Position numbers and translations under genes: made by a program. From the NCBI RefSeq assembly GCF_004011095.1, contig NZ_CP028129.1:992001-1056000 (forward strand): DNA of 64,000 nucleotides, in the 5' to 3' direction. The notes under the pieces are model-generated. The model was not told where the DNA came from. It made no database searches and saw nothing but the letters and a program-made list of their open reading frames with translations. This DNA is from Rathayibacter rathayi (GTDB lineage Bacteria; Actinomycetota; Actinomycetes; Actinomycetales; Microbacteriaceae). Shown here in pieces: positions 30,360 through 39,818 of the stretch. Position 1 is the first letter of the stretch; each line of letters begins with the position of its first letter.

Positions 30360-31724
30360 ATGCACGATCTCGAGATCCTCCGGCTGTTGCGAGTCGCGCT
30401 CGGGGACATGGTGGTGACCGAGGGGCCGGAGTTCGACGGAGTGCACACCGACAAATCGGGCTACGCCGCACAGGGGCGCGCGCTTGCGCTCGTCACGGCA
30501 CGCAGCATCGCCGATGTCCAGGCGGCCCTGCGCTTCGCGACGCAGTACCGGATCCCGGTAGTGCCGCGTGGGGCGGGGACGGGGCTGGCTGCCGGGGGAG
30601 TCGCGAGCGAGGGGGCCCTCGTGCTCTCGACCGCCGCGATGGACCGGATCCTCGAAGTGTCGCTCGAGGACGAGCTGGCGGTCGTCGAGCCCGGCGTGAT
30701 CAACCAGGCGCTCTCGGACGTCGTGGCGCCGCACGGACTGGTGTTCTCGCCCGATCCCGCGAGCAAGGCGATCTCGAGTATCGGCGGCAACATCGCGACC
30801 AACGCGGGCGGACTGCTGTGCGCCAAGTACGGCGTGACCCGGGAGGCGGTGCTCGGCCTGGCCGTCGTGCTCGCCGACGGCCGCCTCCTCCGCACCGGCC
30901 GACGCAGCGTGAAGGGTGTCACCGGTTACGACCTCACCGCGCTGCTGACGGGCTCGGAGGGGACCCTGGGCGTGATCGTGGAGGCGACAGTGAGGCTGCG
31001 GCCGATCCCGAGCGGCGGCATGGTGACCGTCGGCGCGTACTTCCCGAGCGTGGTCGCCGCAGCCGCCGCCTCCGCCGCGATCACTGCCGCACGGCTCCGA
31101 CCCGCGGTGATGGAGCTGATGGACGAGGCGGCGCTCGCTGCGATCGCGCGCTACACAGGTGCAGCGCTGAACCGCGGGGCGGCCTACCTGCTCGTGCAGG
31201 CGGACGGCGGCGCAGCGGCGGAGGAGTCGCAGCGGATCCTCGAGATCATCACCGCGTCCGGAGGCGTCGCTGAGGCGACCGAGGATCCGGCCGAGGGCGA
31301 GGCGCTGCTGGCCGTCCGCCGAGCCTTCCACCCGGCGCTCGAGGCCGAGGGCCGGGTGGTGATCGAGGACGTCTGCGTCCCCCGCTCCGCGCTATCGGCG
31401 ATGTTCGCGGCGATCCGAGGCATCGAACAGCGCACGGGGCTCGACATCCCCACGGTCGCGCACGCGGGAGACGGGAACCTGCACCCGAACTTCGTGCTGC
31501 CCGCGGGCAACGACCCGGTGAGCGAGGAGGTGTGGGCGGCGGCGGCGGAACTCTTCCGCACCGCCCTGTCCCTGGGCGGGACGCTCACGGGCGAGCACGG
31601 CGTGGGTCTGCTCAAGCGGCGTTGGCTGGCGCAGGAGCTGGGCGAGGACTCGATGGCTCTCCAGCGAGGCATCAAGGAGGTGTTCGACCCGCTGGGGATC
31701 ATGAATCCGGGGAAGGTGCTCTGA
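30360..31724 (+). CDS. GlcD-like FAD-binding oxidoreductase
   Basis: 454-residue flavoprotein of the glycolate/D-lactate oxidase (VAO/PCMH) family. Residues about 35-215 bind FAD (PRGAGTGLAAGG, SSIGGNIATNAGGLLCAKYG, GSEGTLGVI). The C-terminal FAD-oxidase domain ends with TLTGEHGVGLLKRRWL and FDPLGIMNPGKVL. It is complete and of normal length. Likely oxidises a 2-hydroxyacid (glycolate or D-lactate); no GlcE/GlcF partners are adjacent. It follows the lipid kinase gene by 41 bp. Confidence 0.93.
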   Translation: MHDLEILRLLRVALGDMVVTEGPEFDGVHTDKSGYAAQGRALALVTARSIADVQAALRFATQYRIPVVPRGAGTGLAAGGVASEGALVLSTAAMDRILEVSLEDELAVVEPGVINQALSDVVAPHGLVFSPDPASKAISSIGGNIATNAGGLLCAKYGVTREAVLGLAVVLADGRLLRTGRRSVKGVTGYDLTALLTGSEGTLGVIVEATVRLRPIPSGGMVTVGAYFPSVVAAAAASAAITAARLRPAVMELMDEAALAAIARYTGAALNRGAAYLLVQADGGAAAEESQRILEIITASGGVAEATEDPAEGEALLAVRRAFHPALEAEGRVVIEDVCVPRSALSAMFAAIRGIEQRTGLDIPTVAHAGDGNLHPNFVLPAGNDPVSEEVWAAAAELFRTALSLGGTLTGEHGVGLLKRRWLAQELGEDSMALQRGIKEVFDPLGIMNPGKVL

Positions 31725-32610: not shown

Positions 32611-32920
32611 CGCATTGCTCCACTTTCCCGCGCCGGTGTCGGCGGTCGGGTCTACCCGACCGTCGCTCCGGGTCGCTGGTGAGAGTAGGCGGGCGGAGGC
32701 GCTCCGAGGGGCCGCAGGCGCGGGGAGGGGAGTTCGAGGCGCGAACCGTGGGCATCAGCCAGAACAGGATCGTCTCGCGCCACGAGCCGACGGAGTCCAG
32801 CACGGGCATCGGGTGCGAGGGCCCAGCCAGCGGCGACTCCGAGGCCGACCAAGCGTAGGTCGAGCGGCAACCCGTCGAGGCCGAGCGCGCCGGAGACGGC
32901 AGGAGAGCGGCCCACCAGAG
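32611..32920. other. Intergenic region next to the element, no convincing gene
   Basis: 310 bp between the glycosyltransferase start and the element. Open frames exist on both strands, but they run into the tRNA-derived att sequence and lack family motifs or ribosome-binding sites. A degraded gene is possible, but I see nothing to identify it. No terminator for the interrupted tRNA is obvious on this side. Confidence 0.4.
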
Positions 32921-32967
32921 GGTGGGCGATACCGGACTCGAACCGATGACCTCTTCCGTGTGAAGGA
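32921..32967. repeat. Left attachment site (3' tRNA-Val fragment)
   Basis: 47 bp identical to the 3' part of the tRNA-Val gene at 39744-39790, from the anticodon loop to the first two C of the CCA end. No 5' half follows here, so it is the duplicated att core and not a tRNA gene. Confidence 0.95.
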
Positions 32968-32970
32968 CTC

Positions 32971-32994
32971 GGAACCTGCTGCGCAGCGGGTTCC
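32971..32994. repeat. 24-bp near-perfect palindrome beside the left att site
   Basis: GGAACCTGCTGC followed by GCAGCGGGTTCC; all pairs match except one symmetric mismatch (T/G). It lies 3 bp inside the element and is a candidate binding site for integrase or excisionase, or a hairpin protecting the left end. Confidence 0.5.
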
Positions 32995-33046
32995 ATACGG
33001 TGATTTCGTTGCATCTGCTGCGGGGATTGGTCGTCGTTTGCACGGT

Positions 33047-33067
33047 GGGGGTGCGCCGGGGGTGCGC
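33047..33067 (+). repeat. Left copy of 21-bp terminal repeat (candidate arm site)
   Basis: Contains two GGGGGTGCGC decamers separated by one C. The identical 21 bp recur in the same orientation at 39649-39669. This copy is 80 bp inside the left att core, just before the rep start codon. Confidence 0.5.
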
Positions 33068-33072
33068 ACGAT

Positions 33073-34233
33073 ATGACCTCCACGGGCACATCTGGCCTAC
33101 CGTCCGATGATGTCCTCGCCGCGATCCGCTCGCACATCTGCGCTCGTCCGTACGAGGTCGAGCCTGGCCGGTTCATTCGGTGTCAGTCTCGCCGTACAGC
33201 GGTGTGTCCGTCGTGCGCTGGTCTATATCGTGGCGATTGGCAGCGCATCGCACGGTCGGGCATCTACGACGCCGACGGGCACCCGCTCCCGTTGTACAAG
33301 TACTTCTTCATCACGCTGTCCGCTCCATCGTTCGGCTCGGTGCATCTGGTGCCGAAATGGGAGCGCGATGCGGGCAAGCGTTGCAAGTGCGGGCAGACTC
33401 ATGGGCACGATGACGTGCACCTACGCGGGCTGCCGATTGATCCGGATTCGTACCGGTATGAGGATCAGGTGCGGTGGCACGGGGCGCTCGGGCGGCTGTG
33501 GAAGTCGGCGGCTGCGGCGATGCGGCGGCTCTGCCCGGATGCGGAGTATTACGCCGTACGAGAGTTACAACACCGCATGGCGCTGCACCTCCACATCGTC
33601 TTGAGAGTTCCTGTGGGGGCAGCCGTCGATGCCGAGACGATGGGACACGCTGCGCGTATGGCGACAGCGACGCATCCCGTTACGGGCGAGGTTGTCGAGT
33701 GGGGCAAGCGGGGTGTGCAGGATCGAGAGATTCGGGCGCGAGTCACGGAGTCGGATGACGTGACGCCGGACATGTCGCGGGCTGCTGCACGCATCGTCTC
33801 GTACGTTTCGAAGTGCCTTGCGTATTCGACCAAGGACATCACGCCGGGGGAACGTGACGAAACGGCGACGCCTGAGCGGGTCGAGTTCGTCAAGCGGATG
33901 CGACAGGCCGCGCGGATCGGTGTGCGTTGCGTGGACTGCCCTCCTGGCGGGCCATCGGATTGCCCTCGACGGGCGCATGACAACCTCGGATATGGCGGCC
34001 ACGTCGTGACGGTTTCGCGTCCGACTGAGCAGCGCGAGGGATGGAGCCTGTCGCACCTAACGCGGAAGCGATTGAGGGAGGAACGCGCGGCCTGGATGGA
34101 GGCGAATCGGCCTGCTGACGTCGGCGGCGGATTGAGTGACGGTGATGTGAGGTTGGCGGAGTGGCTGGCTGAGCAAGCGGCGCGGCGTGCTCGTGAGGCT
34201 TGGAGCGCGAAGCAGCACGCGCGGGCACCGTAA
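33073..34233 (+). CDS. RepSA-like rolling-circle replication initiator
   Basis: 386 residues, resembling the Rep proteins of actinomycete integrative elements. There is an N-terminal Cys-rich region (CQSRRTAVCPSCAGLYRGDW, about residues 38-57, then CKCG). The motif-1-like FFITLSAPSFGSVH follows, then the HUH motif H172-L-H174 in ALHLHIVL, and the catalytic tyrosine motif Y244-V-S-K247. A second Cys cluster, CVDCPPGGPSDC, lies near residue 300. Expected to nick the element at its double-strand origin once excised. ATG start; the upstream GGGGGTG is the likely ribosome-binding site. Confidence 0.85.
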   Translation: MTSTGTSGLPSDDVLAAIRSHICARPYEVEPGRFIRCQSRRTAVCPSCAGLYRGDWQRIARSGIYDADGHPLPLYKYFFITLSAPSFGSVHLVPKWERDAGKRCKCGQTHGHDDVHLRGLPIDPDSYRYEDQVRWHGALGRLWKSAAAAMRRLCPDAEYYAVRELQHRMALHLHIVLRVPVGAAVDAETMGHAARMATATHPVTGEVVEWGKRGVQDREIRARVTESDDVTPDMSRAAARIVSYVSKCLAYSTKDITPGERDETATPERVEFVKRMRQAARIGVRCVDCPPGGPSDCPRRAHDNLGYGGHVVTVSRPTEQREGWSLSHLTRKRLREERAAWMEANRPADVGGGLSDGDVRLAEWLAEQAARRAREAWSAKQHARAP

Positions 34234-34406
34234 CTCTGCGCACCGGGCATGAGGGTTGGCGGCTACGGCTGTCGGCCCTATTTGGCGTGCTTGGTTTGCG
34301 TCGTCGTCGAGGGCAAGGGCCGCTTGCGGCGCGCGGCAGCACTGATGCGGTCGGAATTGACGGGGAAGCGGCCCCAGACAGGGCGGCGTGACCCTGCGGG
34401 CGGGGT

Positions 34407-34455
34407 GCGTGTGCGCCGCGAACGGCCGAAGGCCGCACGCGCAAGGCGCACACGC
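34407..34455. other. Nested stem-loop downstream of rep (candidate origin or clt)
   Basis: Outer perfect 11-bp inverted repeat GCGTGTGCGCC / GGCGCACACGC (34407-34417, 34445-34455) encloses an inner CGGCC-GAA-GGCCG hairpin (34423-34435). It lies in a 350-bp gene-free stretch (34234-34582) after rep. Two copies of CGCGTCAGCGCCC (34469-34481, 34524-34536) follow. Such structure-rich DNA beside rep is where rolling-circle origins or transfer loci are found; function is inferred. Confidence 0.45.
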
Positions 34456-34464
34456 TCACCCGCA

Positions 34465-34489
34465 CGGGCGCGTCAGCGCCCGTCTTGTT
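34465..34489 (+). terminator. Hairpin terminator after rep
   Basis: Perfect 7-bp stem CGGGCGC / GCGCCCG, loop GTCA, followed by TCTTGTT. It is on the plus strand downstream of rep. Confidence 0.6.
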
Positions 34490-34582
34490 CGTGTGGGGCG
34501 TCTTTTCCCGGCAAGGCCGGATACGCGTCAGCGCCCCCCCCGATATGGGGACGCCGGTCGCTGGCCCGATCGGAATGAGCGC

Positions 34583-35209
34583 CTACTGCCGAAGTCCGGC
34601 AACTTCGTCGTAAGTCAGTCCGTCGACGGTGCCGAACAGGACTCCGTAGACCTTCTTCGCGTCTACTGGGTCGAGTCCGATATCTCGACGCGCTAGCGCG
34701 ATTGCTTCGGTAGTAAGCATGGCCAGCTGCGCTTTGCGCGGTCCGAGTTCAAGCGTGACGGTGGCGTTGGCATCTCCGAGCGCTGCGCGCTGGCGAGCAA
34801 TTTCGTCTCGATATTCTGCGCCAATAGCGTCGATTAGGAGTGTTCTGTCCGCGAGCTTGTCAAGTAACTCGGACGATCCCCACGTCACAATATTTGCGCG
34901 CATCGGGAGATCGACATCTTGGAGATTTAGGCCTTGCATTACTACCGCGGTCGCGTTTGAGATGAAGCTTTCAAGAGCATCACGGGACTTCTCATCAACT
35001 GCCTGGATGCGCACGTCCGACCAAGTTTGAACGCCGAACACTGCCGCAGCTGAGGCTAGCGATGCGGGTACGGCGGTGGTCGCGAACCCGATCAAGGCGG
35101 GGTTGTCCGAGAGTAGTCCGACTATGAGTAGGGCAATTCCGCCGGAGAAGGTCAGCGTGGCTGCGCCGGTGACGATGGTTCGCAGGGCTGTCTTGCTTGG
35201 ATGTCGCAC
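34583..35209 (-). CDS. Element-encoded membrane protein of unknown function
   Basis: 208 residues from GTG 35209, chosen because AGAGG lies 7 nt upstream; a TTG start at 35278 would be longer but passes over the likely promoter. Two hydrophobic helices (about residues 12-32 and 38-60: TLTFSGGIALLIVGLLS and FATTAVPASLASAAAVFGV) are followed by a 145-residue cytoplasmic domain rich in charged helices, ending VDGLTYDEVAGLRQ. I recognise no family. Base composition is far from the host genes. It could be cargo (for example immunity or exclusion), but there is no sequence proof. Confidence 0.7.
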   Translation of the reverse strand: MRHPSKTALRTIVTGAATLTFSGGIALLIVGLLSDNPALIGFATTAVPASLASAAAVFGVQTWSDVRIQAVDEKSRDALESFISNATAVVMQGLNLQDVDLPMRANIVTWGSSELLDKLADRTLLIDAIGAEYRDEIARQRAALGDANATVTLELGPRKAQLAMLTTEAIALARRDIGLDPVDAKKVYGVLFGTVDGLTYDEVAGLRQ

Positions 35210-35234
35210 TGTATGGCCTCTTCCGCTCAGACTG

Positions 35235-35240
35235 AGTGTA
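35235..35240 (-). promoter_or_regulatory. Putative -10 box for the element membrane protein
   Basis: TACACT on the minus strand, about 25 bp upstream of the GTG start and ahead of its ribosome-binding site. It gives this gene its own promoter, separate from the regulator gene upstream. Confidence 0.4.
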
Positions 35241-35280
35241 TCGTCCGCGTTCTCTCGGTTAGGCCCGCATCCCGGCAACG

Positions 35281-35312
35281 AAAAGCCCCTGACCTGCGAA
35301 CAGGCCAGGGGC
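35281..35312 (-). terminator. Terminator of the element regulator gene
   Basis: On the minus strand GCCCCTGGCCTG pairs with CAGGTCAGGGGC around a TTCG loop (one mismatch), followed by TTTT. It lies 15 bp after the stop of the 35327-35728 gene. Confidence 0.8.
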
Positions 35313-35326
35313 AGAGGACGCGCCGA

Positions 35327-35728
35327 TTAGTCGGGTATGTCGTCATGTGTCAGCGGGTCGTGTGCCCACCGACCGATGGATGCTTGCCCGACCGTGCCGA
35401 TGGGGGTTGCCGTCGGGTCGTCAAGCGTGCCGTTGAGTGCACGGGCAGCTTCGCGTTGTGAGAGGTGGCCTCCCAACAGCGCGACCTCAACTGTGAGGCG
35501 CTGCGCAATCTCGGCATCACGTCTAACGATGGCGAGGCTCGACAACGCGTCACCCAGGCGCTCGCGCGAGGTGCGGCCCTTCGCAGTCACGACTTCGCCC
35601 ATCGCTTGCCTCGCCGTCGCGATAATGCGCTCGAAGTATGGCGCGAGATTGCTGGGATCGTCGGCCAGTCCGGGCGCGACGTAGTTGCGTGCTGGTTGAT
35701 AAGTCGGAGGAAGCTCGTTCGCGCTCAT
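35327..35728 (-). CDS. Putative HTH regulator of the element
   Basis: 133 residues, no family recognised with certainty. Residues about 88-125 (GGHLSQREAARALNGT, then GQASIGRWAHDP) read like a helix-turn-helix with an inserted loop. The gene is divergent from the Pra-like/transfer operon, and the 155-bp gap holds two related palindromes over a promoter. That layout suggests an autoregulated repressor of transfer, in the manner of KorSA-type regulators. Function is inferred from context plus the weak HTH. Confidence 0.6.
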   Translation of the reverse strand: MSANELPPTYQPARNYVAPGLADDPSNLAPYFERIIATARQAMGEVVTAKGRTSRERLGDALSSLAIVRRDAEIAQRLTVEVALLGGHLSQREAARALNGTLDDPTATPIGTVGQASIGRWAHDPLTHDDIPD

Positions 35729-35809
35729 GAGGCAACGCTAGCAGAGCGCGCCAGTTTGGTGCAGATGAACGTGCAAGAACGTTGCGAAGACGAGCAATCA
35801 ACAAGATTC

Positions 35810-35830
35810 GTTGAACCAACACGGTTCGAC
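35810..35830. promoter_or_regulatory. Candidate operator 1 (imperfect palindrome)
   Basis: GTTGAACC-N5-GGTTCGAC, 7 of 8 arm positions symmetric, overlapping the putative -35 box of the transfer operon. It shares its GAACCAA...GGTTC core with operator 2. Confidence 0.55.
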
Positions 35831-35840
35831 GTGGTACGTT
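35811..35840 (+). promoter_or_regulatory. Putative promoter of the element transfer operon
   Basis: TTGAAC (35811-35816), 18-bp spacer, TACGTT (35835-35840), about 44 bp before the first gene of the operon. Both operator-like palindromes overlap or flank it. Confidence 0.55.
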
Positions 35841-35844
35841 GCAG

Positions 35845-35867
35845 TGGTGAACCAAACTGGTTCACCA
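35845..35867. promoter_or_regulatory. Candidate operator 2 (perfect palindrome)
   Basis: TGGTGAACCA-N3-TGGTTCACCA, 10 perfect pairs, centred 36 bp from operator 1 and placed where transcription would start. Ideal for repression of the 35884-39696 operon. Confidence 0.65.
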
Positions 35868-35883
35868 GGACGAGAGGAACACC

Positions 35884-36213
35884 ATGTTCAAGATTGATGA
35901 GTCTGAGGACATCCGGGCGCTGTCGTTTCAGCCGAAGATCGCGGATCGCAAGACGGGTGAGCAGAAGATCGACCGGGTGAGCAACCTGCCCGTGTGGTCG
36001 GTGACTGCGCTGAAGATGAGCGATGACCCACTGGAGAAGCCGGAGTTGATCACGGTCTCTATAACGTCCCGTACGGAGCCGGAGATTCTGCCGCTGGCGA
36101 CGGGCTTCGAGGGCCTGGAGGTCGGCAACTATGCGATCCCCGGCGACGGTGGCGGCATTCAGGCTGCTGGACTGTTCTTCCGGGCATCCGCTCTCGTGGC
36201 GTTGGAGGCGTGA
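35884..36213 (+). CDS. Pra-like plasmid replication/integration/excision activator (putative)
   Basis: 109 residues. The stretch FQPKIADRKTGEQKIDR, then NLPVWSVTALKM, and the final EGLEVGNYAIP resemble the small proteins placed upstream of the FtsK-like transfer gene in actinomycete elements and often labelled activators of replication, integration and excision. I recall the family pattern but cannot align it here. First gene of the rightward operon, behind the operator/promoter region; GAGAGGAACACC gives the ribosome-binding site. Confidence 0.5.
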   Translation: MFKIDESEDIRALSFQPKIADRKTGEQKIDRVSNLPVWSVTALKMSDDPLEKPELITVSITSRTEPEILPLATGFEGLEVGNYAIPGDGGGIQAAGLFFRASALVALEA

Positions 36214-36215
36214 TC

Positions 36216-36767
36216 ATGTCGAAGCTCGTTCAGGTCGGGCGTCGCGTGACGGTTTGTGCGTTTGCTGCTGCGGCGGTTGTGGTGCTGGCGGCGTGTTCGG
36301 CGGCTGCGCCCGTTGAGGTGGATACTCCGGCGCGGGAGGGCACAGAGGTGCAGATTCGCTCACTTCCTGGGGACGAGTACGGAATTCGTCTCGGTGAGGT
36401 GGTCGAAGGCAGCGAACCGGGAACGGCAAGGGCTGAGGTGTGGCTGCCATCGTATGGGGGCGGCGGGGTTTGGTTCCGAGTCTCGACTGTCGAAGGAAAT
36501 TCACCGTTTCTAAGCACTCTGTGTGAGGGAGCGGTGCTGTTCTGGGGCGAGATTCGTCTTGATGGTAGTGACGCCTGCGGATACTCCGTCGCGATGAAGG
36601 GCGATCTACGAGAGGGTGTGACGCTCTCACTGAACGATGTTCCGGCGAATTCGTCGGTGCACTACGAGGTGGAGGTTCGCTCTCTGGCAGACGGCACCGG
36701 CTACCAGCCGGAGCTTCGCTCGGTGTTCATGATCGGCAAGTTGATTCCCTCGGGGTCTGCACGATGA
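36216..36767 (+). CDS. Putative secreted lipoprotein of the element
   Basis: 183 residues with a basic N-terminus, a hydrophobic core (VCAFAAAAVVVLA) and a lipobox LAAC, so probably exported and diacylated (the host has lspA at 6.6 kb). The mature part is about 155 residues, predicted beta-rich, with two further cysteines (LCEGA and DACGYS). No family recognised. ATG 36216 is preferred to GTG 36210, because GGAGG is 7 nt upstream. Its stop overlaps the translocase start (ATGA), so the two are co-translated. A surface role in transfer or exclusion is a guess. Confidence 0.7.
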   Translation: MSKLVQVGRRVTVCAFAAAAVVVLAACSAAAPVEVDTPAREGTEVQIRSLPGDEYGIRLGEVVEGSEPGTARAEVWLPSYGGGGVWFRVSTVEGNSPFLSTLCEGAVLFWGEIRLDGSDACGYSVAMKGDLREGVTLSLNDVPANSSVHYEVEVRSLADGTGYQPELRSVFMIGKLIPSGSAR

Positions 36768-38152
36768 GCGCCCTGCTGAGGTCGTGGGGTTGGTGGCTAA
36801 CGAAGGGCGTCGGGCGCTCCCTTCTCGCGTTCGGGTACACCGCCGCCTATGTTGTCATCGTCGTCGCATCGCTCATGCAGGCGCGCACGAGCGTGGCGGC
36901 ACTGCTGCTCGCGATTGTGTTGCTGGCTGCGGGTGTGGCTGCCCTGATTTGGTTTCCGAGGTTCGCACCAGGGGTTGGTGATTGGCGGCGCTGGCTTAGA
37001 GCGCGGGCTACTCGTCGTGCAGCGGTGCAGGGCTACCGGCATGCCGTGGGGATGCGACTGATCCCGGCGCTGTCGGATGACGACTACGAGTGGGCGAGGC
37101 GGAGGCCGGTGAAGCGGCTGCCTTCGGCGCGTTTCCGTGTGATGCCGGATTGGGTCGTGCTCACGGTGGCGCAGACTCAGGCCGCGACGACGGATGAGTT
37201 GGTCAAGCGCGCTGAGTCGTATGCTCCGGTGGTGGCGGCGCCTGCTGATTGGGTGACGGTGCAACGACAGACCGATGCCGTGGTGCGGATCGTATGGCGT
37301 CGCGCTGCCCCGGTCGATCAGCTTGCTGAGAGCATCCCGTTCCAGGTGGGGCCGGCGTCGGCTGATCCGATTGCGCCAGTGCTGGTGGGGCGCACGGACG
37401 CCGGCGCTGAGTACCGGGTCAACGTGTTCGACCGTCAGACTCTGGTACTTGGGGCGTCCGGTGCCGGAAAGGGTTCGTGGCTATGGTCTACCGTCCTTGC
37501 GCTGACGCCGCATATCAAGGCTGGGACTGTCGAAGTCTGGGGAGCCGATTTGAAGGGCGGCGTGGAGCTGTCAGCCGCGTTGCCGATGTTCGCACGTACG
37601 GCGACCACGTTCGAGCAGGCAGCGGAGATGATCGCCGCGCTGCGTGCCGAGGTGGATCGGCGGCTCGAGCACATGTTGTCAGTCGGTTCACGTAAGCATG
37701 TGCCGACGCCGGAACAGCCCGCCCGGCTGATGATCTTCGACGAGTTCGCTTCGCTGGTCTATAGCGCTCCGAGTAGCAAGGAGAAGGCTGCGGTTGAAGC
37801 TGATATCAAGTCGATCACCTCGCGCGGACGAGCAGCCCGGGTCTGTTTGCTCGCGTTCGGCCAGGATCCTCGTGCTGACTCACTACTGGCACGTCCGCTG
37901 TTCACGAACGTCGTAGGCCTTCGGTTCCGGACTGCCGATGATACGAAGCTGGCGATTGGTCCGGCTGCGTATGATGCGGGGGCCAAGTGCGAGTTGATCC
38001 CGCAGTCCACGCCTGGCGTCGGGTACGCGATGGATGAGGAGTCGGGGACGGTGCAGCGCGTGCGGGCGTTCTGGGTGTCGGATGAGGTGCTTGCTGAGGC
38101 CTCGGCAGACATGGAGCGGTTCGCGGCCCTGCGGGAAGGGGCGGCATCATGA
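36764..38152 (+). CDS. FtsK/TraSA-like DNA translocase (conjugal transfer)
   Basis: Single-protein double-strand DNA pump used by actinomycete elements for cell-to-cell transfer. The 462-residue product has two N-terminal transmembrane helices (about 18-40 and 43-65), a linker domain, and an FtsK-type motor: Walker A GASGAGKG at residues 230-237, DLKGGVE, Walker B LMIFDEFA with D326-E327, and GQDPRAD. It lacks an obvious gamma winged-helix tail in the last residues. It overlaps the lipoprotein gene upstream and the 38149 gene downstream by 4 bp each. Confidence 0.9.
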   Translation: MSALLRSWGWWLTKGVGRSLLAFGYTAAYVVIVVASLMQARTSVAALLLAIVLLAAGVAALIWFPRFAPGVGDWRRWLRARATRRAAVQGYRHAVGMRLIPALSDDDYEWARRRPVKRLPSARFRVMPDWVVLTVAQTQAATTDELVKRAESYAPVVAAPADWVTVQRQTDAVVRIVWRRAAPVDQLAESIPFQVGPASADPIAPVLVGRTDAGAEYRVNVFDRQTLVLGASGAGKGSWLWSTVLALTPHIKAGTVEVWGADLKGGVELSAALPMFARTATTFEQAAEMIAALRAEVDRRLEHMLSVGSRKHVPTPEQPARLMIFDEFASLVYSAPSSKEKAAVEADIKSITSRGRAARVCLLAFGQDPRADSLLARPLFTNVVGLRFRTADDTKLAIGPAAYDAGAKCELIPQSTPGVGYAMDEESGTVQRVRAFWVSDEVLAEASADMERFAALREGAAS

Positions 38153-38418
38153 ACGCTGCACCTGACGATCTGACGAACTACTCGCTGGAAGACTTGAACG
38201 CCTTCATTCGGCGCATGGAGCTCGGTGCGATAGCTGCGGCGATGCGCGGTCAGGGTCCGGAGGCTGCCGACACGCTGGGTGAGCTTTACGAGCTTCGGGA
38301 CCGTGTTTGGGAGCGTCAGCGTGCGCAGGAGTGGGAGCTTCAGCGTGAGTGTGACTGGCACGCAGAAATTGAGGCTGCGGCTGACCGCGAGTTTGAAGAG
38401 GGGCGCGATGATGACTGA
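38149..38418 (+). CDS. Small acidic protein of unknown function
   Basis: 89 residues, strongly charged and predicted all-helical (LEDLNAFIRRMELGAIAAAM, then LYELRDRVWERQRAQEWELQ), with an acidic tail ending EEGRDDD. No family recognised. Its ATG overlaps the translocase stop (ATGA) and its end overlaps the excisionase start, so it is a real coupled gene. Could be an accessory to the translocase or the excisionase. Confidence 0.7.
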   Translation: MNAAPDDLTNYSLEDLNAFIRRMELGAIAAAMRGQGPEAADTLGELYELRDRVWERQRAQEWELQRECDWHAEIEAAADREFEEGRDDD

Positions 38419-38605
38419 TCACACGGCCTCGTCAGATGACCGGTTGTTTATTTCTGAGCGCGATCTCGCGGCGCATTTGGGGTGCCACCCTAGTACCCTC
38501 ACGAGGCTTGCTCAGCAAGGCAAGCTCCCGGTGCAGCCGGTCTATGTCGGGCATCGCCGCGTGTACCCCCGCGCGGCAGTTGAGAAGCTGGCGGGGGTGG
38601 CGTGA
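38408..38605 (+). CDS. xis: Excisionase-like HTH protein (Xis)
   Basis: 65 residues with a MerR/excisionase-type winged helix: FISERDLAAHLGCHPSTL, then the wing VYVGHRRVYPRAAVEKL. It directly precedes and overlaps the integrase gene (TGATG), the usual xis-int order of AICEs. Starts at ATG 38408 or 38411; AGAGGGG precedes. Expected to direct integrase toward excision. Confidence 0.85.
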   Translation: MMTDHTASSDDRLFISERDLAAHLGCHPSTLTRLAQQGKLPVQPVYVGHRRVYPRAAVEKLAGVA

Positions 38606-39696
38606 TGGCATTCGTTCGTAAGACGGATGCGGGCCGCTGGCGGGGTATCGCCAAGCGAGGTCGGGTGGTGCTGGGATCGCGCACTTTCGATCTGCGCCGC
38701 GACGCAATCGCGTGGGCCGAACGTACGGAGGCGCAAGCGGTCGGCGGTGTCGACCTGCGGGCTGGGAAGGTGCTGATACGCGATCTGCTGCCGGAATGGC
38801 TGGAGCATCGTCGGGCGACGGTGACGCCACAGGCTGCGGCGACGGACGGTCAGTTGATTCGGCTCATGTCGCCGTCGCTGGGGGCGCGTGCTGTGGCCTC
38901 GGTGCTACCGGTCGATGTCGAACGTTGGTACGTCTACCTGCGTCAGCATCAGCATCAGTCGGACGGGTCGATGAAGCGCTATCGCGGGTCGCTGTCGGCG
39001 TTCTTCGCGTGGTGCATCGCTGAGGGTCGCACGGCACAGAATCCGGTGACCGCATCACGGCTTCCCGCGCCAGTCGGCCCGCCGTCCGAGATGCGTCCGC
39101 TCTCTGAGGCTGATTTGTTCGATGTAGTGGAGAAGGTGCGCGCACGCTGCGAGCATTGCGCTGACCTCGTGACGGTTCTCGCCTGGACCGGAGCAAGATT
39201 TGGGGAGGCCCGCGAGCTTAGAGTGAAGGACGTCAGCGAGCAGCCCACGCCGTCGCTACGGGTCGCGCGGAGCCGGTCAGAGGGCGAGCCGGTCAAGAGC
39301 ACGAAGGGCCGTCGAGTTCGACGTGTGCCGCTCGCCGAACCAGCCTGGGCGATCGTTCGCGAACTCATGCGCTTGAAGCGTCCGGATGACTTGTTGCTGA
39401 CGGGTGAGCACGGCGGGCAACTTTGGCGGTCGCAGTTCCTGCGTTCGTCGGGCTTCACGGAGGCCTCGGGCGGGCGTCGAATTCACGATCTACGGCACAC
39501 GTTCGCCACGCTGGCTCTGGCTCGTGGTGTCGATCTAGCGACGGTCTCCAAGTGGCTCGGACACGGGTCGGTGTCGATCACGGATCGGTACATGCACTAC
39601 CTCGGCACCCAAGCTGATATGGCTGGCCTGGCGCTGCTGAATAGCGGCGGGGGTGCGCCGGGGGTGCGCGTCGATGAGAGCGAGGCGGGGCTATGA
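38605..39696 (+). CDS. int: Tyrosine integrase
   Basis: Site-specific recombinase of 363 residues. It has an N-terminal arm-binding-like domain (about 1-60), a core-binding SAM-like domain (about 65-160) and a catalytic domain with R198 (TGARFGEA), a Lys in KSTKGRRV, H294-x-x-R297 (HDLRHTFA), H320 (LGHGS) and the nucleophile Y329 (DRYMHYLG). All catalytic residues are present. GTG 38602 is an alternative start. The gene points at the tRNA-Val att site 48 bp away; its last codons contain the right 21-bp terminal repeat. Confidence 0.95.
   Translation: MAFVRKTDAGRWRGIAKRGRVVLGSRTFDLRRDAIAWAERTEAQAVGGVDLRAGKVLIRDLLPEWLEHRRATVTPQAAATDGQLIRLMSPSLGARAVASVLPVDVERWYVYLRQHQHQSDGSMKRYRGSLSAFFAWCIAEGRTAQNPVTASRLPAPVGPPSEMRPLSEADLFDVVEKVRARCEHCADLVTVLAWTGARFGEARELRVKDVSEQPTPSLRVARSRSEGEPVKSTKGRRVRRVPLAEPAWAIVRELMRLKRPDDLLLTGEHGGQLWRSQFLRSSGFTEASGGRRIHDLRHTFATLALARGVDLATVSKWLGHGSVSITDRYMHYLGTQADMAGLALLNSGGGAPGVRVDESEAGL
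39649..39669 (+). repeat. Right copy of 21-bp terminal repeat (candidate arm site)
   Basis: Identical to 33047-33067 and in the same orientation, 74 bp inside the right att core. It overlaps the C-terminal codons of int. In the excised circle the two copies would flank the core at nearly equal distances. Confidence 0.5.
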
Positions 39697-39704
39697 GGGC
39701 GGCG

Positions 39705-39735
39705 AAAAGCCCTTCTACCAAGCGGCAGAAGGGCT
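39705..39735 (-). terminator. Terminator for tRNA-Val(CAC), lying inside the element
   Basis: On the minus strand, AGCCCTTCT and AGAAGGGCT form a perfect 9-bp stem (39708-39716 with 39727-39735) followed by TTTT, 8 bp beyond the tRNA 3' end. It is in element DNA, between int and the right att site. Confidence 0.8.
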
Positions 39736-39743
39736 GTTCGGAT

Positions 39744-39790
39744 GGTGGGCGATACCGGACTCGAACCGATGACCTCTTCCGTGTGAAGGA
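39744..39790. repeat. Right attachment site within the intact tRNA-Val gene
   Basis: 47-bp copy identical to 32921-32967. It spans the anticodon loop to the 3' end of the tRNA-Val gene, so the integrated element restores a full tRNA. Confidence 0.95.
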
Positions 39791-39818
39791 AGCGCGCTAC
39801 CAACTGCGCCAATCGCCC
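39746..39818 (-). tRNA. tRNA-Val(CAC)
   Basis: 73-nt cloverleaf on the minus strand. The acceptor GGGCGAT pairs with ATCGCCC; the anticodon stem CTTCC/GGAAG holds loop TTCACAC with anticodon CAC; the T-loop is TTCGAGT. CCA is encoded next (39743-39745). Integration target of the element. Confidence 0.97.

What the first reader, a model, noticed from the sequence alone, without database searches (positions are those of the whole stretch)
32921..39790. Minimal pSAM2-type integrative element in a non-filamentous actinobacterium
A 6.8-kb unit with exact 47-bp att repeats in tRNA-Val(CAC) carries rep, tra (FtsK), a Pra-like gene, xis and int, all intact. AICEs were mainly described in mycelial actinomycetes, where single-protein double-strand DNA transfer is tied to hyphal growth; if this host is a rod-shaped Microbacteriaceae, the transfer mode deserves attention. 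Several spread (Spd) genes are missing, which suits a unicellular host.
Basis: partly seen in the sequence, partly recalled or inferred. Interest (0 to 1): 0.75.

Follow-up and report, generated by a model that had tools for sequence, protein, structure and literature searches.

The report
Small tRNA-integrated conjugative element, Rathayibacter
A 6.9-kb piece of mobile DNA sits in a transfer-RNA gene of a rod-shaped bacterium and carries the genes to cut itself out, copy itself and probably pump itself as double-stranded DNA into another cell, a mode best known from thread-forming Streptomyces.

Summary
[quoted passage not shown] The host is a Rathayibacter, which also carries a second, more pSAM2-like AICE. 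A sister in Microbacterium esteraromaticum uses the same 47-bp site; tra dN/dS is about 0.1; 11 of 14 other genus genomes have the site empty. Corrections: it is not strictly pSAM2-type (rep lies at attL, Pra match is weak), and AICEs were already reported in unicellular Mycobacterium. SpdB and DUF2637 were not found in either AICE of this host, and no SpdB match passed the cut-off in 398 Microbacteriaceae genomes. Beyond the finding: a candidate origin motif (CTTG[AT][TC]CnTGT[AG]) present once, on the rep strand, in 21 of 26 related elements and 0 times in their flanks; and a clade of Tra-less 3-9 kb rep-cargo-int islands whose slot often holds defence-type genes. Neither turned up in the papers searched. 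Excision, replication and transfer between single cells are inferred, not shown.

The parts
32921..32967 (+). attL, 47-bp core
   Evidence: exact repeat of 39744-39790; same 47 bp in L033 and L034, host sequence differs just outside
32971..32994 (.). hairpin just inside attL (10-bp stem with one T-G pair); possible Int/Xis or terminator site (role inferred)
   Evidence: conserved in L033 and L034 but for one loop base
33043..33067 (+). putative integrase arm-type repeat (two GGGGGTGCGC units), left arm
   Evidence: 96% copy at 39645-39669 (D10); 75 bp inside the left core, its partner 74 bp inside the right one; conserved in L033 and L034. Role inferred
33073..34233 (+). rep: RepSA-family rolling-circle initiator (HUH, 386 aa)
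   Evidence: PF20199 126 bits; H172-x-H174 and Y244 invariant in all 18 aligned sequences; that these are the catalytic residues is read from the HUH pattern
34464..34483 (+). hairpin (8-bp perfect stem) of the candidate double-strand origin
   Evidence: z -2.96 for the 61-nt region; conserved in L033, L034; such a hairpin stands before the motif in 8 of 24 elements scanned
34484..34505 (+). candidate origin nick-site motif CTTGTTCGTGTGGGGCGTCTTT
   Evidence: only match in the window, 0 in 100 shuffles; motif once in 21 of 26 elements, same strand as rep; 15 of 20 matches in 398 genomes lie in these elements, 5 hits for the reversed control
34583..35278 (-). orfM231: orphan protein with hydrophobic N-terminal part, in the cargo slot (true start probably a GTG near 35210, my reading)
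   Evidence: no family hit; three other marginal matches in 398 genomes; slot content differs in L033, L034, L024
35327..35728 (-). orfM133: probable DNA-binding regulator divergent from pra (my reading; no HTH family hit)
   Evidence: distant homologues in L034, L187, L188
35845..35867 (.). 10-bp-arm palindrome, candidate operator of the pra promoter
   Evidence: unlike palindrome of 8-bp arms in the same interval of L034; only 5-bp arms in L033
35884..36213 (+). pra-like activator (SCO3933 family, weak)
   Evidence: NCBIfam 31 bits, cut-off 80; identical protein in L034
36210..36767 (+). predicted lipoprotein between pra and tra (lipobox LAAC, read by eye)
   Evidence: hydrophobic leader 9-38; homologues in L033, L034, L036
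36764..38152 (+). tra: FtsK/SpoIIIE-type DNA translocase, hydrophobic segments 16-69, 462 aa
   Evidence: PF01580; nearest solved chains TcpA coupling protein and FtsK; dN/dS 0.10 and 0.09
38149..38418 (+). orf89, conserved small protein after tra
   Evidence: 91% and 88% identical in L033 and L034
38408..38605 (+). xis, excisionase-like HTH
   Evidence: PF12728 31 bits, PHROG 66
38602..39696 (+). int, tyrosine integrase
   Evidence: PF00589 64.7 bits
39645..39669 (+). putative integrase arm-type repeat, right arm
   Evidence: D10; L033 differs at one base
39744..39790 (+). attR, 47-bp core inside tRNA-Val
39743..39818 (-). tRNA-Val(CAC), target gene kept whole

Best explanation
This is an intact integrated AICE of a RepSA lineage so far seen in Microbacteriaceae. 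Shown by sequence: site-specific insertion in tRNA-Val(CAC), open int, xis, rep and tra genes, purifying selection, a sister in another genus, and an empty site in most genus relatives. Inferred: the M133 regulator keeps the pra operon off; on release Pra allows expression; Int and Xis recombine the 47-bp cores with help of the symmetric arm repeats; Rep nicks the CTTG motif beside the hairpin at 34464-34505 and starts rolling-circle replication; the membrane-anchored FtsK-like Tra pumps double-stranded circular DNA into a touching cell; Int reseals it in the recipient's tRNA-Val. No spread (Spd) proteins are needed because there is no mycelium to spread through. The rep-pra interval is a cargo slot.
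For: att and tRNA; families; same 47-bp pair in L033 and left copy in L034, with different host flanks; rep, tra and int 92-93% identical to L033 (lipoprotein 89%) while the only two flanking chromosomal genes with a counterpart in the window are 66 and 74%; dN/dS of tra 0.10/0.09, rep 0.13/0.12, int 0.08, pra 0.05/0, orf89 0.19/0.12, xis 0.22; left flank sits beside tRNA-Val with no element in 11 of 14 other genus genomes; Rep in a 100/100-supported clade of six Tra+ elements; origin motif; no VirB4-like AAA_10 match in the host genome.
Against: No attP, circular form, replication or transfer has been seen; no reads were available. The Tra match is modest (35 bits), its nearest solved chains are TcpA coupling proteins rather than a TraB, and no clt site was looked for. 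The flank comparison rests on two genes. The lipoprotein is poorly conserved with L034 (48%, dN/dS 0.46). Tra relatives at 24-33% identity occur in 13 contigs of the viral collection (context not examined). The origin motif is missing in two of the six Tra+ clade members (L035, L036).
Confidence: 0.8

Rival explanations
1. It is an integrative mobilizable element whose rolling-circle Rep acts as relaxase and whose FtsK-like protein is a TcpA-type coupling protein, sending single-stranded DNA through a T4SS supplied in trans (as with MobT/TcpA elements of Firmicutes).
For: The nearest solved relatives of Tra are TcpA coupling-protein chains (6o1w/x/z, E 5e-13), slightly ahead of FtsK (2ius, 2e-12). 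Rep is a rolling-circle HUH protein. PMC5704250 (passages) describes such IMEs.
Against: No AAA_10/VirB4-like match in the host genome, while 10 of 14 control genomes ring, 3 over the cut-off; a helper in another cell is not excluded. The element has a Pra-like gene and pra-tra order as in AICEs.
Confidence: 0.08
2. It is a phage satellite (small tRNA-integrated rep-int element with cargo) that travels in a helper phage's particles.
For: Size, tRNA site, rep + int + cargo; Tra-less relatives of mostly 3-5 kb exist with defence-type cargo, and none of 14 hosts of those carries an AICE-like Tra elsewhere. Distant Tra relatives occur in 13 viral-collection contigs.
Against: No capsid or packaging gene among the nine proteins (a terminase-small PHROG overlaps the HTH of xis at 27 bits); Rep has no match in 50,697 phage records and one distant one in viral contigs; the origin motif in viral contigs is met in 17 records of 30-46% GC without rep or tra homologues. 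A conserved tra argues for conjugation.
Confidence: 0.05
3. It is an immobile remnant, kept by chance or for its cargo.
For: No direct evidence of mobility; AICEs are prone to decay (PMC9513070, passages).
Against: All nine frames open, exact att, low dN/dS across genera, same site used in another genus, patchy presence.
Confidence: 0.07

Closest known systems
pSAM2-type AICEs (Streptomyces; RepSA-SAM2 subfamily)
   Same: tyrosine Int + Xis, RepSA-family Rep, Pra-like gene, single FtsK-like Tra, insertion at the 3' end of a tRNA gene
   Different: rep next to attL, not before xis-int; Rep below the RepSA equivalog cut-off; another type of regulator instead of GntR; lipoprotein between pra and tra; no SpdB/DUF2637. 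Compared with one Streptomyces AICE fetched here, L098, 10 kb; pSAM2 itself was not fetched
Second AICE of the same genome (L023, 10.9 kb, tRNA-Arg(ACG), 99-bp att)
   Same: AICE in the same host, also without a SpdB match
   Different: canonical RepSA (510 bits), order pra-tra-rep-int, no origin motif of the present type
Elements of Microbacterium esteraromaticum B Mb 05.01 (L033) and Microbacterium sp. MYb62 (L034)
   Same: same att core, same backbone gene order, 88-89% (L033) and 79-91% (L034) nucleotide identity over the long backbone blocks
   Different: other content in the slot between rep and pra: no cargo gene beyond the regulator in L033, AbiTii in L034
AICEs of Mycobacterium/Mycolicibacterium
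   Same: FtsK-type AICE in a unicellular actinobacterium (PMC3218068, PMC8190616, passages)
   Different: all Mycobacterium AICEs but one use serine recombinases, per PMC3218068

Membership tests
AICE (definition of Ghinet et al. 2011, PMC3218068) | Int, Rep and FtsK/SpoIIIE Tra genes together | tested here: met
AICE (definition of Ghinet et al. 2011, PMC3218068) | int next to one att site, not between rep and tra | tested here: met
   47 bp between int and attR
AICE (general) | flanking direct repeats, empty site in relatives | tested here: met
   (11 of 14 genus genomes)
AICE (general) | excision and rolling-circle replication of the circle | not testable with these tools
   no reads; candidate origin only
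AICE (general) | conjugative transfer of double-stranded DNA by Tra | not testable with these tools
   sequence only
pSAM2-type AICE | RepSA family, Pfam | tested here: met
   126 bits, cut-off 34
pSAM2-type AICE | RepSA equivalog, NCBIfam | tested here: not met
   79 bits, cut-off 700
pSAM2-type AICE | Pra of SCO3933 family | tested here: inconclusive
   31 bits, cut-off 80; Streptomyces control 152.7
pSAM2-type AICE | spread genes (SpdB PF05122, DUF2637) | tested here: not met
   no match; control L098 matches both
pSAM2-type AICE | order pra-tra-rep-xis-int | tested here: not met
   rep is first, at attL; L098 and L023 have rep between tra and int
T4SS-dependent IME | helper T4SS (VirB4-like) in the host genome | tested here: not met
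   AAA_10 0 matches in G000; helper in another cell not excluded
Phage satellite | packaging or capsid-hijacking genes | tested here: not met
   PHROGs scan of 9 proteins, phage records with Rep

The most novel reading that the evidence does not exclude
A Spd-free AICE lineage, with its own conserved origin and a lipoprotein next to tra, conjugates double-stranded DNA directly between single cells of unicellular rods, and kin of its backbone gave rise to a clade of Tra-less rep-cargo-int islands of 3-9 kb that shuttle defence-type genes through Microbacteriaceae with the same origin.
Probability: 0.35. Interest if true: 0.72.

Novelty: new variant of a known kind. Interest (0 to 1): 0.5.

Why it matters
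A 2017 review (PMC5704250, passage) states that TraB-type double-strand transfer is restricted to multicellular actinobacteria. An intact, selected, intergeneric AICE without recognisable spread genes in rods makes that statement testable with a 6-kb element in Microbacterium. The origin motif offers a tag by which such elements, also Tra-less ones, can be found in genomes, and the cargo slot is a place to look for unknown defence genes.

Tried and rejected
A T4SS in the host was looked for and not found. A phage link was looked for: no Rep match in phage records, one distant viral contig, 17 motif matches in viral contigs without rep or tra homologues, 13 viral contigs with distant Tra relatives that I did not examine further. 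Plasmids: 16 of 72,556 records hold distant Rep matches, none covering 80% of the query. Rep has no relative among solved structures. The HopW1-1 match of orfM133 (E 0.017, below cut-off) is taken as chance. orfM231 has no usable relatives; that it is a defence gene is guilt by association only. No background rate of defence genes outside these slots was measured, and many PADLOC hits (AAA ATPases, HTH control proteins) are unspecific. The origin motif was read from eight elements and then counted on 26 that include them, so 13 of the 18 others have it; the wider test is the genome scan. Dropped before the count as duplicates of the same contigs: L039 and L041-L045 (against L025-L028, L030, L187). 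Not put into that count: L037, L047, L050-L060, L174-L179, L182, L185, L186. My first codon-based gene caller missed most element genes and was replaced, which itself missed some. clt sites were not looked for. Tra was not searched in plasmids.
Full report
OBSERVATION. The window lies at 992001-1056000 of a 3,103,889-base single-contig genome. The claimed element is real: 47-bp exact repeats at 32921-32967 and 39744-39790, the right one covering the 3' part of tRNA-Val(CAC) c39743-39818. Seven + and two - ORFs lie between. Pfam and NCBIfam give RepSA (126 bits), FtsK_SpoIIIE, HTH_17, Phage_integrase and a weak SCO3933/Pra match; orfM231, orfM133, the lipoprotein and orf89 match nothing above a cut-off. 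PHROGs finds integrase, excisionase-type, FtsK-like and a few weak matches.

HOST. A chromosomal glycolate oxidase at 30360-31721 is 94% identical to Rathayibacter tritici and 82-90% to other named Rathayibacter, against at most 69% for named other genera among the best 120 of 1,627 proteins; family Microbacteriaceae. Species not determined. That Rathayibacter are non-mycelial rods is recalled.

SECOND AICE. The same genome holds a canonical RepSA (510 bits) at 2352276 in a 10.9-kb unit bounded by 99-bp repeats at tRNA-Arg(ACG), with pra, tra, rep and int.

SISTERS AND MOBILITY. Among the 80 loci kept from GTDB genomes the nearest Reps are in Microbacterium esteraromaticum (L033, 93%) and Microbacterium sp. 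MYb62 (L034, 85%). L033 is bounded by the same 47 bp in tRNA-Val(CAC), span 6.1 kb; L034's contig ends inside int, so only its left core is seen. The long backbone blocks are 88-89% identical in DNA to L033 and 79-91% to L034. The two chromosomal genes beside L033 that have a counterpart in the window are 66 and 74% identical in protein, against 92-93% for rep, tra and int. Outside the core the three hosts differ, inside they agree. dN/dS (NG86, window against L033 / L034): tra 0.10/0.09, rep 0.13/0.12, int 0.08, pra 0.05/0, orf89 0.19/0.12, xis 0.22, lipoprotein 0.13/0.46. In all 14 other genus genomes held, tRNA-Val is found; in 11 of 14 the left-flank block (32753-32903, or part of it) lies within about 0.8 kb of it, so the site is empty; in 3 (G200, G206, G207) the left neighbour differs. 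The nine of these genomes listed have no RepSA.

FINE STRUCTURE. (a) A 25-bp repeat of two GGGGGTGCGC units lies 75 and 74 bp inside the two cores and is conserved: probable integrase arm sites. (b) Behind rep a perfect 8-bp hairpin runs into CTTGTTCGTGTGGGGC. In 8 of 24 elements scanned a hairpin stands before the same kind of sequence. The motif CTTG[AT][TC]CnTGT[AG], without regard to a hairpin, is present once, in the direction of rep and int, in 21 of 26 elements and 0 times in 784,024 strand-bases of their flanks; 13 of the 18 elements not used to read it have it. In 398 family genomes the longer pattern CTTGWYCNTGTRNRGNNNNTTT hits 20 genomes once each; 15 of these lie in the RepSA elements, 5 do not, equal to the 5 hits of the reversed-pattern control. 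It is absent from L025 (decayed), L035, L036, L040 and the canonical L023. That pC194-like origins are nicked at CTTG is recalled; PMC3218068 (section 7) reports that pSAM2 was placed in the pC194 family by its motifs and nick site. (c) Between orfM133 and pra lies a 10-bp-arm palindrome; L034 has an unlike one with 8-bp arms, L033 only short ones. (d) The slot between rep and pra differs in the sisters.

FAMILY SURVEY. RepSA occurs in 26 of 398 Microbacteriaceae genomes (25 over the cut-off). Of these 26: 7 genomes hold 8 Tra+ elements (two in the present host; att found by my script for 4 of the 8); 14 hold a Tra-less unit, of which 12 are bounded by tRNA repeats, one (L190) lies at a contig end and one (L025, 26-bp repeat) is decayed; 5 could not be classed (G007, G295, G301, G302; G298 not fetched). 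In L184 no int was recognised. A Rep tree (42 rows, IQ-TREE) puts the window with L033, L034, L024, L035 and L036, all Tra+, in one clade (100/100), and 17 Tra-less Reps in another (98/99); the other 4 rows labelled Tra-less (L186, L047, L056, L185) lie outside it, several on long branches or at contig ends, so their label is unsure. In all 14 hosts of Tra-less units, FtsK-type matches reach at most 60 bits and lie in frames of over 800 aa, unlike an AICE Tra (17 genomes searched; G148, a Tra+ host in the same search, reached 514 bits).

CARGO. Twenty chosen proteins from the slots of 16 elements were scanned; not every slot gene was, and L183 and L038-L049 were not. PADLOC matches at E<=1e-3 were found in 8 of 11 Tra-less islands (HEC-01, TIR-TM, AbiU/AIPR, OLD/Gabija-like, a weak PDC-S02 on an Mrr-like protein, type II methyltransferase, PDC-S23, a weak DzbB) and 4 of 5 Tra+ elements (AbiTii in L034, methyltransferase in L024, PDC-S61 in L036, weak PDC-S06 in L023); L029, L030, L181 and, among the Tra+, L035 had none, though L030 has a PemK-like protein by Pfam. 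The window's own slot gene orfM231 matches nothing. Defence cargo in AICEs is known from Streptomyces (PMC9513070, passages).

SPD. A Streptomyces AICE (L098) scanned as control has SpdB 97.6 bits, DUF2637 76 bits and a GntR regulator. The nine proteins here have neither. SpdB passes its cut-off in 0 of 398 Microbacteriaceae genomes; 4 have matches of 21.5-23 bits, below 25 (none of the 14 built-in control genomes rang, so L098 is the positive control). By tblastn with L098's proteins, SpdB is met in 7 and DUF2637 in 14 of 71 loci (L098 itself counted), 0 of the 13 Microbacteriaceae Tra+ ones. Many loci from mycelial hosts also fail this single-query test, so absence is a trend, not proof.

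LITERATURE. PMC3218068 (abstract, sections 5, 7, 8 and passages): AICE definition, 144 putative AICEs, Mycobacterium among hosts. PMC8190616 (passages): an AICE-like contig in Mycolicibacterium. PMC7478629 (passages): few AICEs in Mycobacteriaceae. PMC5704250 (passages): single-protein transfer 'restricted to multicellular Actinobacteria'. PMC5526665 and PMC6579920 (passages): large ICEs of cheese actinobacteria; RUSTI has VirD4-type machinery. PMC11706625 (passages): AICEs near defence genes. No held paper has both AICE and Microbacteriaceae; none of the 12 of 24 listed holds Rathayibacter. Searches for RepSA origins and for rep-int islands in Microbacteriaceae (listings only) showed no title on this origin or these islands. 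Subscription papers, such as te Poele 2008, are not held, so prior description elsewhere is not excluded.

MECHANISM. Steps shown: anatomy, selection, site use, empty sites. Steps inferred: repression by M133, activation by Pra, excision by Int/Xis, rolling-circle copying from the CTTG origin, Tra-driven double-strand transfer, re-integration. A TcpA-like single-strand route is the main rival, weakened by the lack of a VirB4-like match.

VERDICT. A real, intact AICE; a new variant of a known kind. The surprise lies less in its presence than in the Spd-free family pattern, the shared origin motif and the Tra-less island clade beside it.

Noticed in passing
L026, L027, L028, L029, L030, L180, L181, L183, L184, L187, L188, L189, L190 (also L038, L040, L046, L048, L049): Tra-less rep-cargo-int islands of about 3-9 kb in tRNA-Phe or tRNA-Met of Microbacteriaceae, rep at the attL side, int at the attR side (no int recognised in L184), mostly one Rep clade, cargo slot often with defence-type genes. 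How they move is unknown.
   Followed up: partly
L026:13009-13401 and homologues in 9 other distinct islands: A conserved 130-aa protein (MADFR.ERMPSPEGEG...) directly before int in many Tra-less islands; possibly their excisionase or regulator.
   Followed up: no
L023 (G000:C1 about 2344632-2355494): Second, canonical RepSA AICE in the same genome with 99-bp att in tRNA-Arg(ACG).
   Followed up: partly
L037 (Rathayibacter tanaceti, 4.65-kb contig): A 58% Rep relative read in two frames, with tRNA-Ser(GCT) on the same contig; not examined further.
   Followed up: no
G200:C21:4719-4783 (L191): An exact 65-nt extra piece of tRNA-Val(CAC) on another contig of a genus relative, perhaps an att copy of an unrelated element.
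   Followed up: no
L180:8359-9130: Fragments of the 130-aa gene and of an integrase just left of attL, a hint of an older element at the same tRNA-Phe.
   Followed up: no
L025 / L039 (Microbacterium suaedae): A decayed 2.6-kb unit in tRNA-Met with rep split over two frames.
   Followed up: no
G106:C1:2524505-2525749 (L148): Canonical RepSA with one in-frame TGA, probably a decaying AICE.
   Followed up: no
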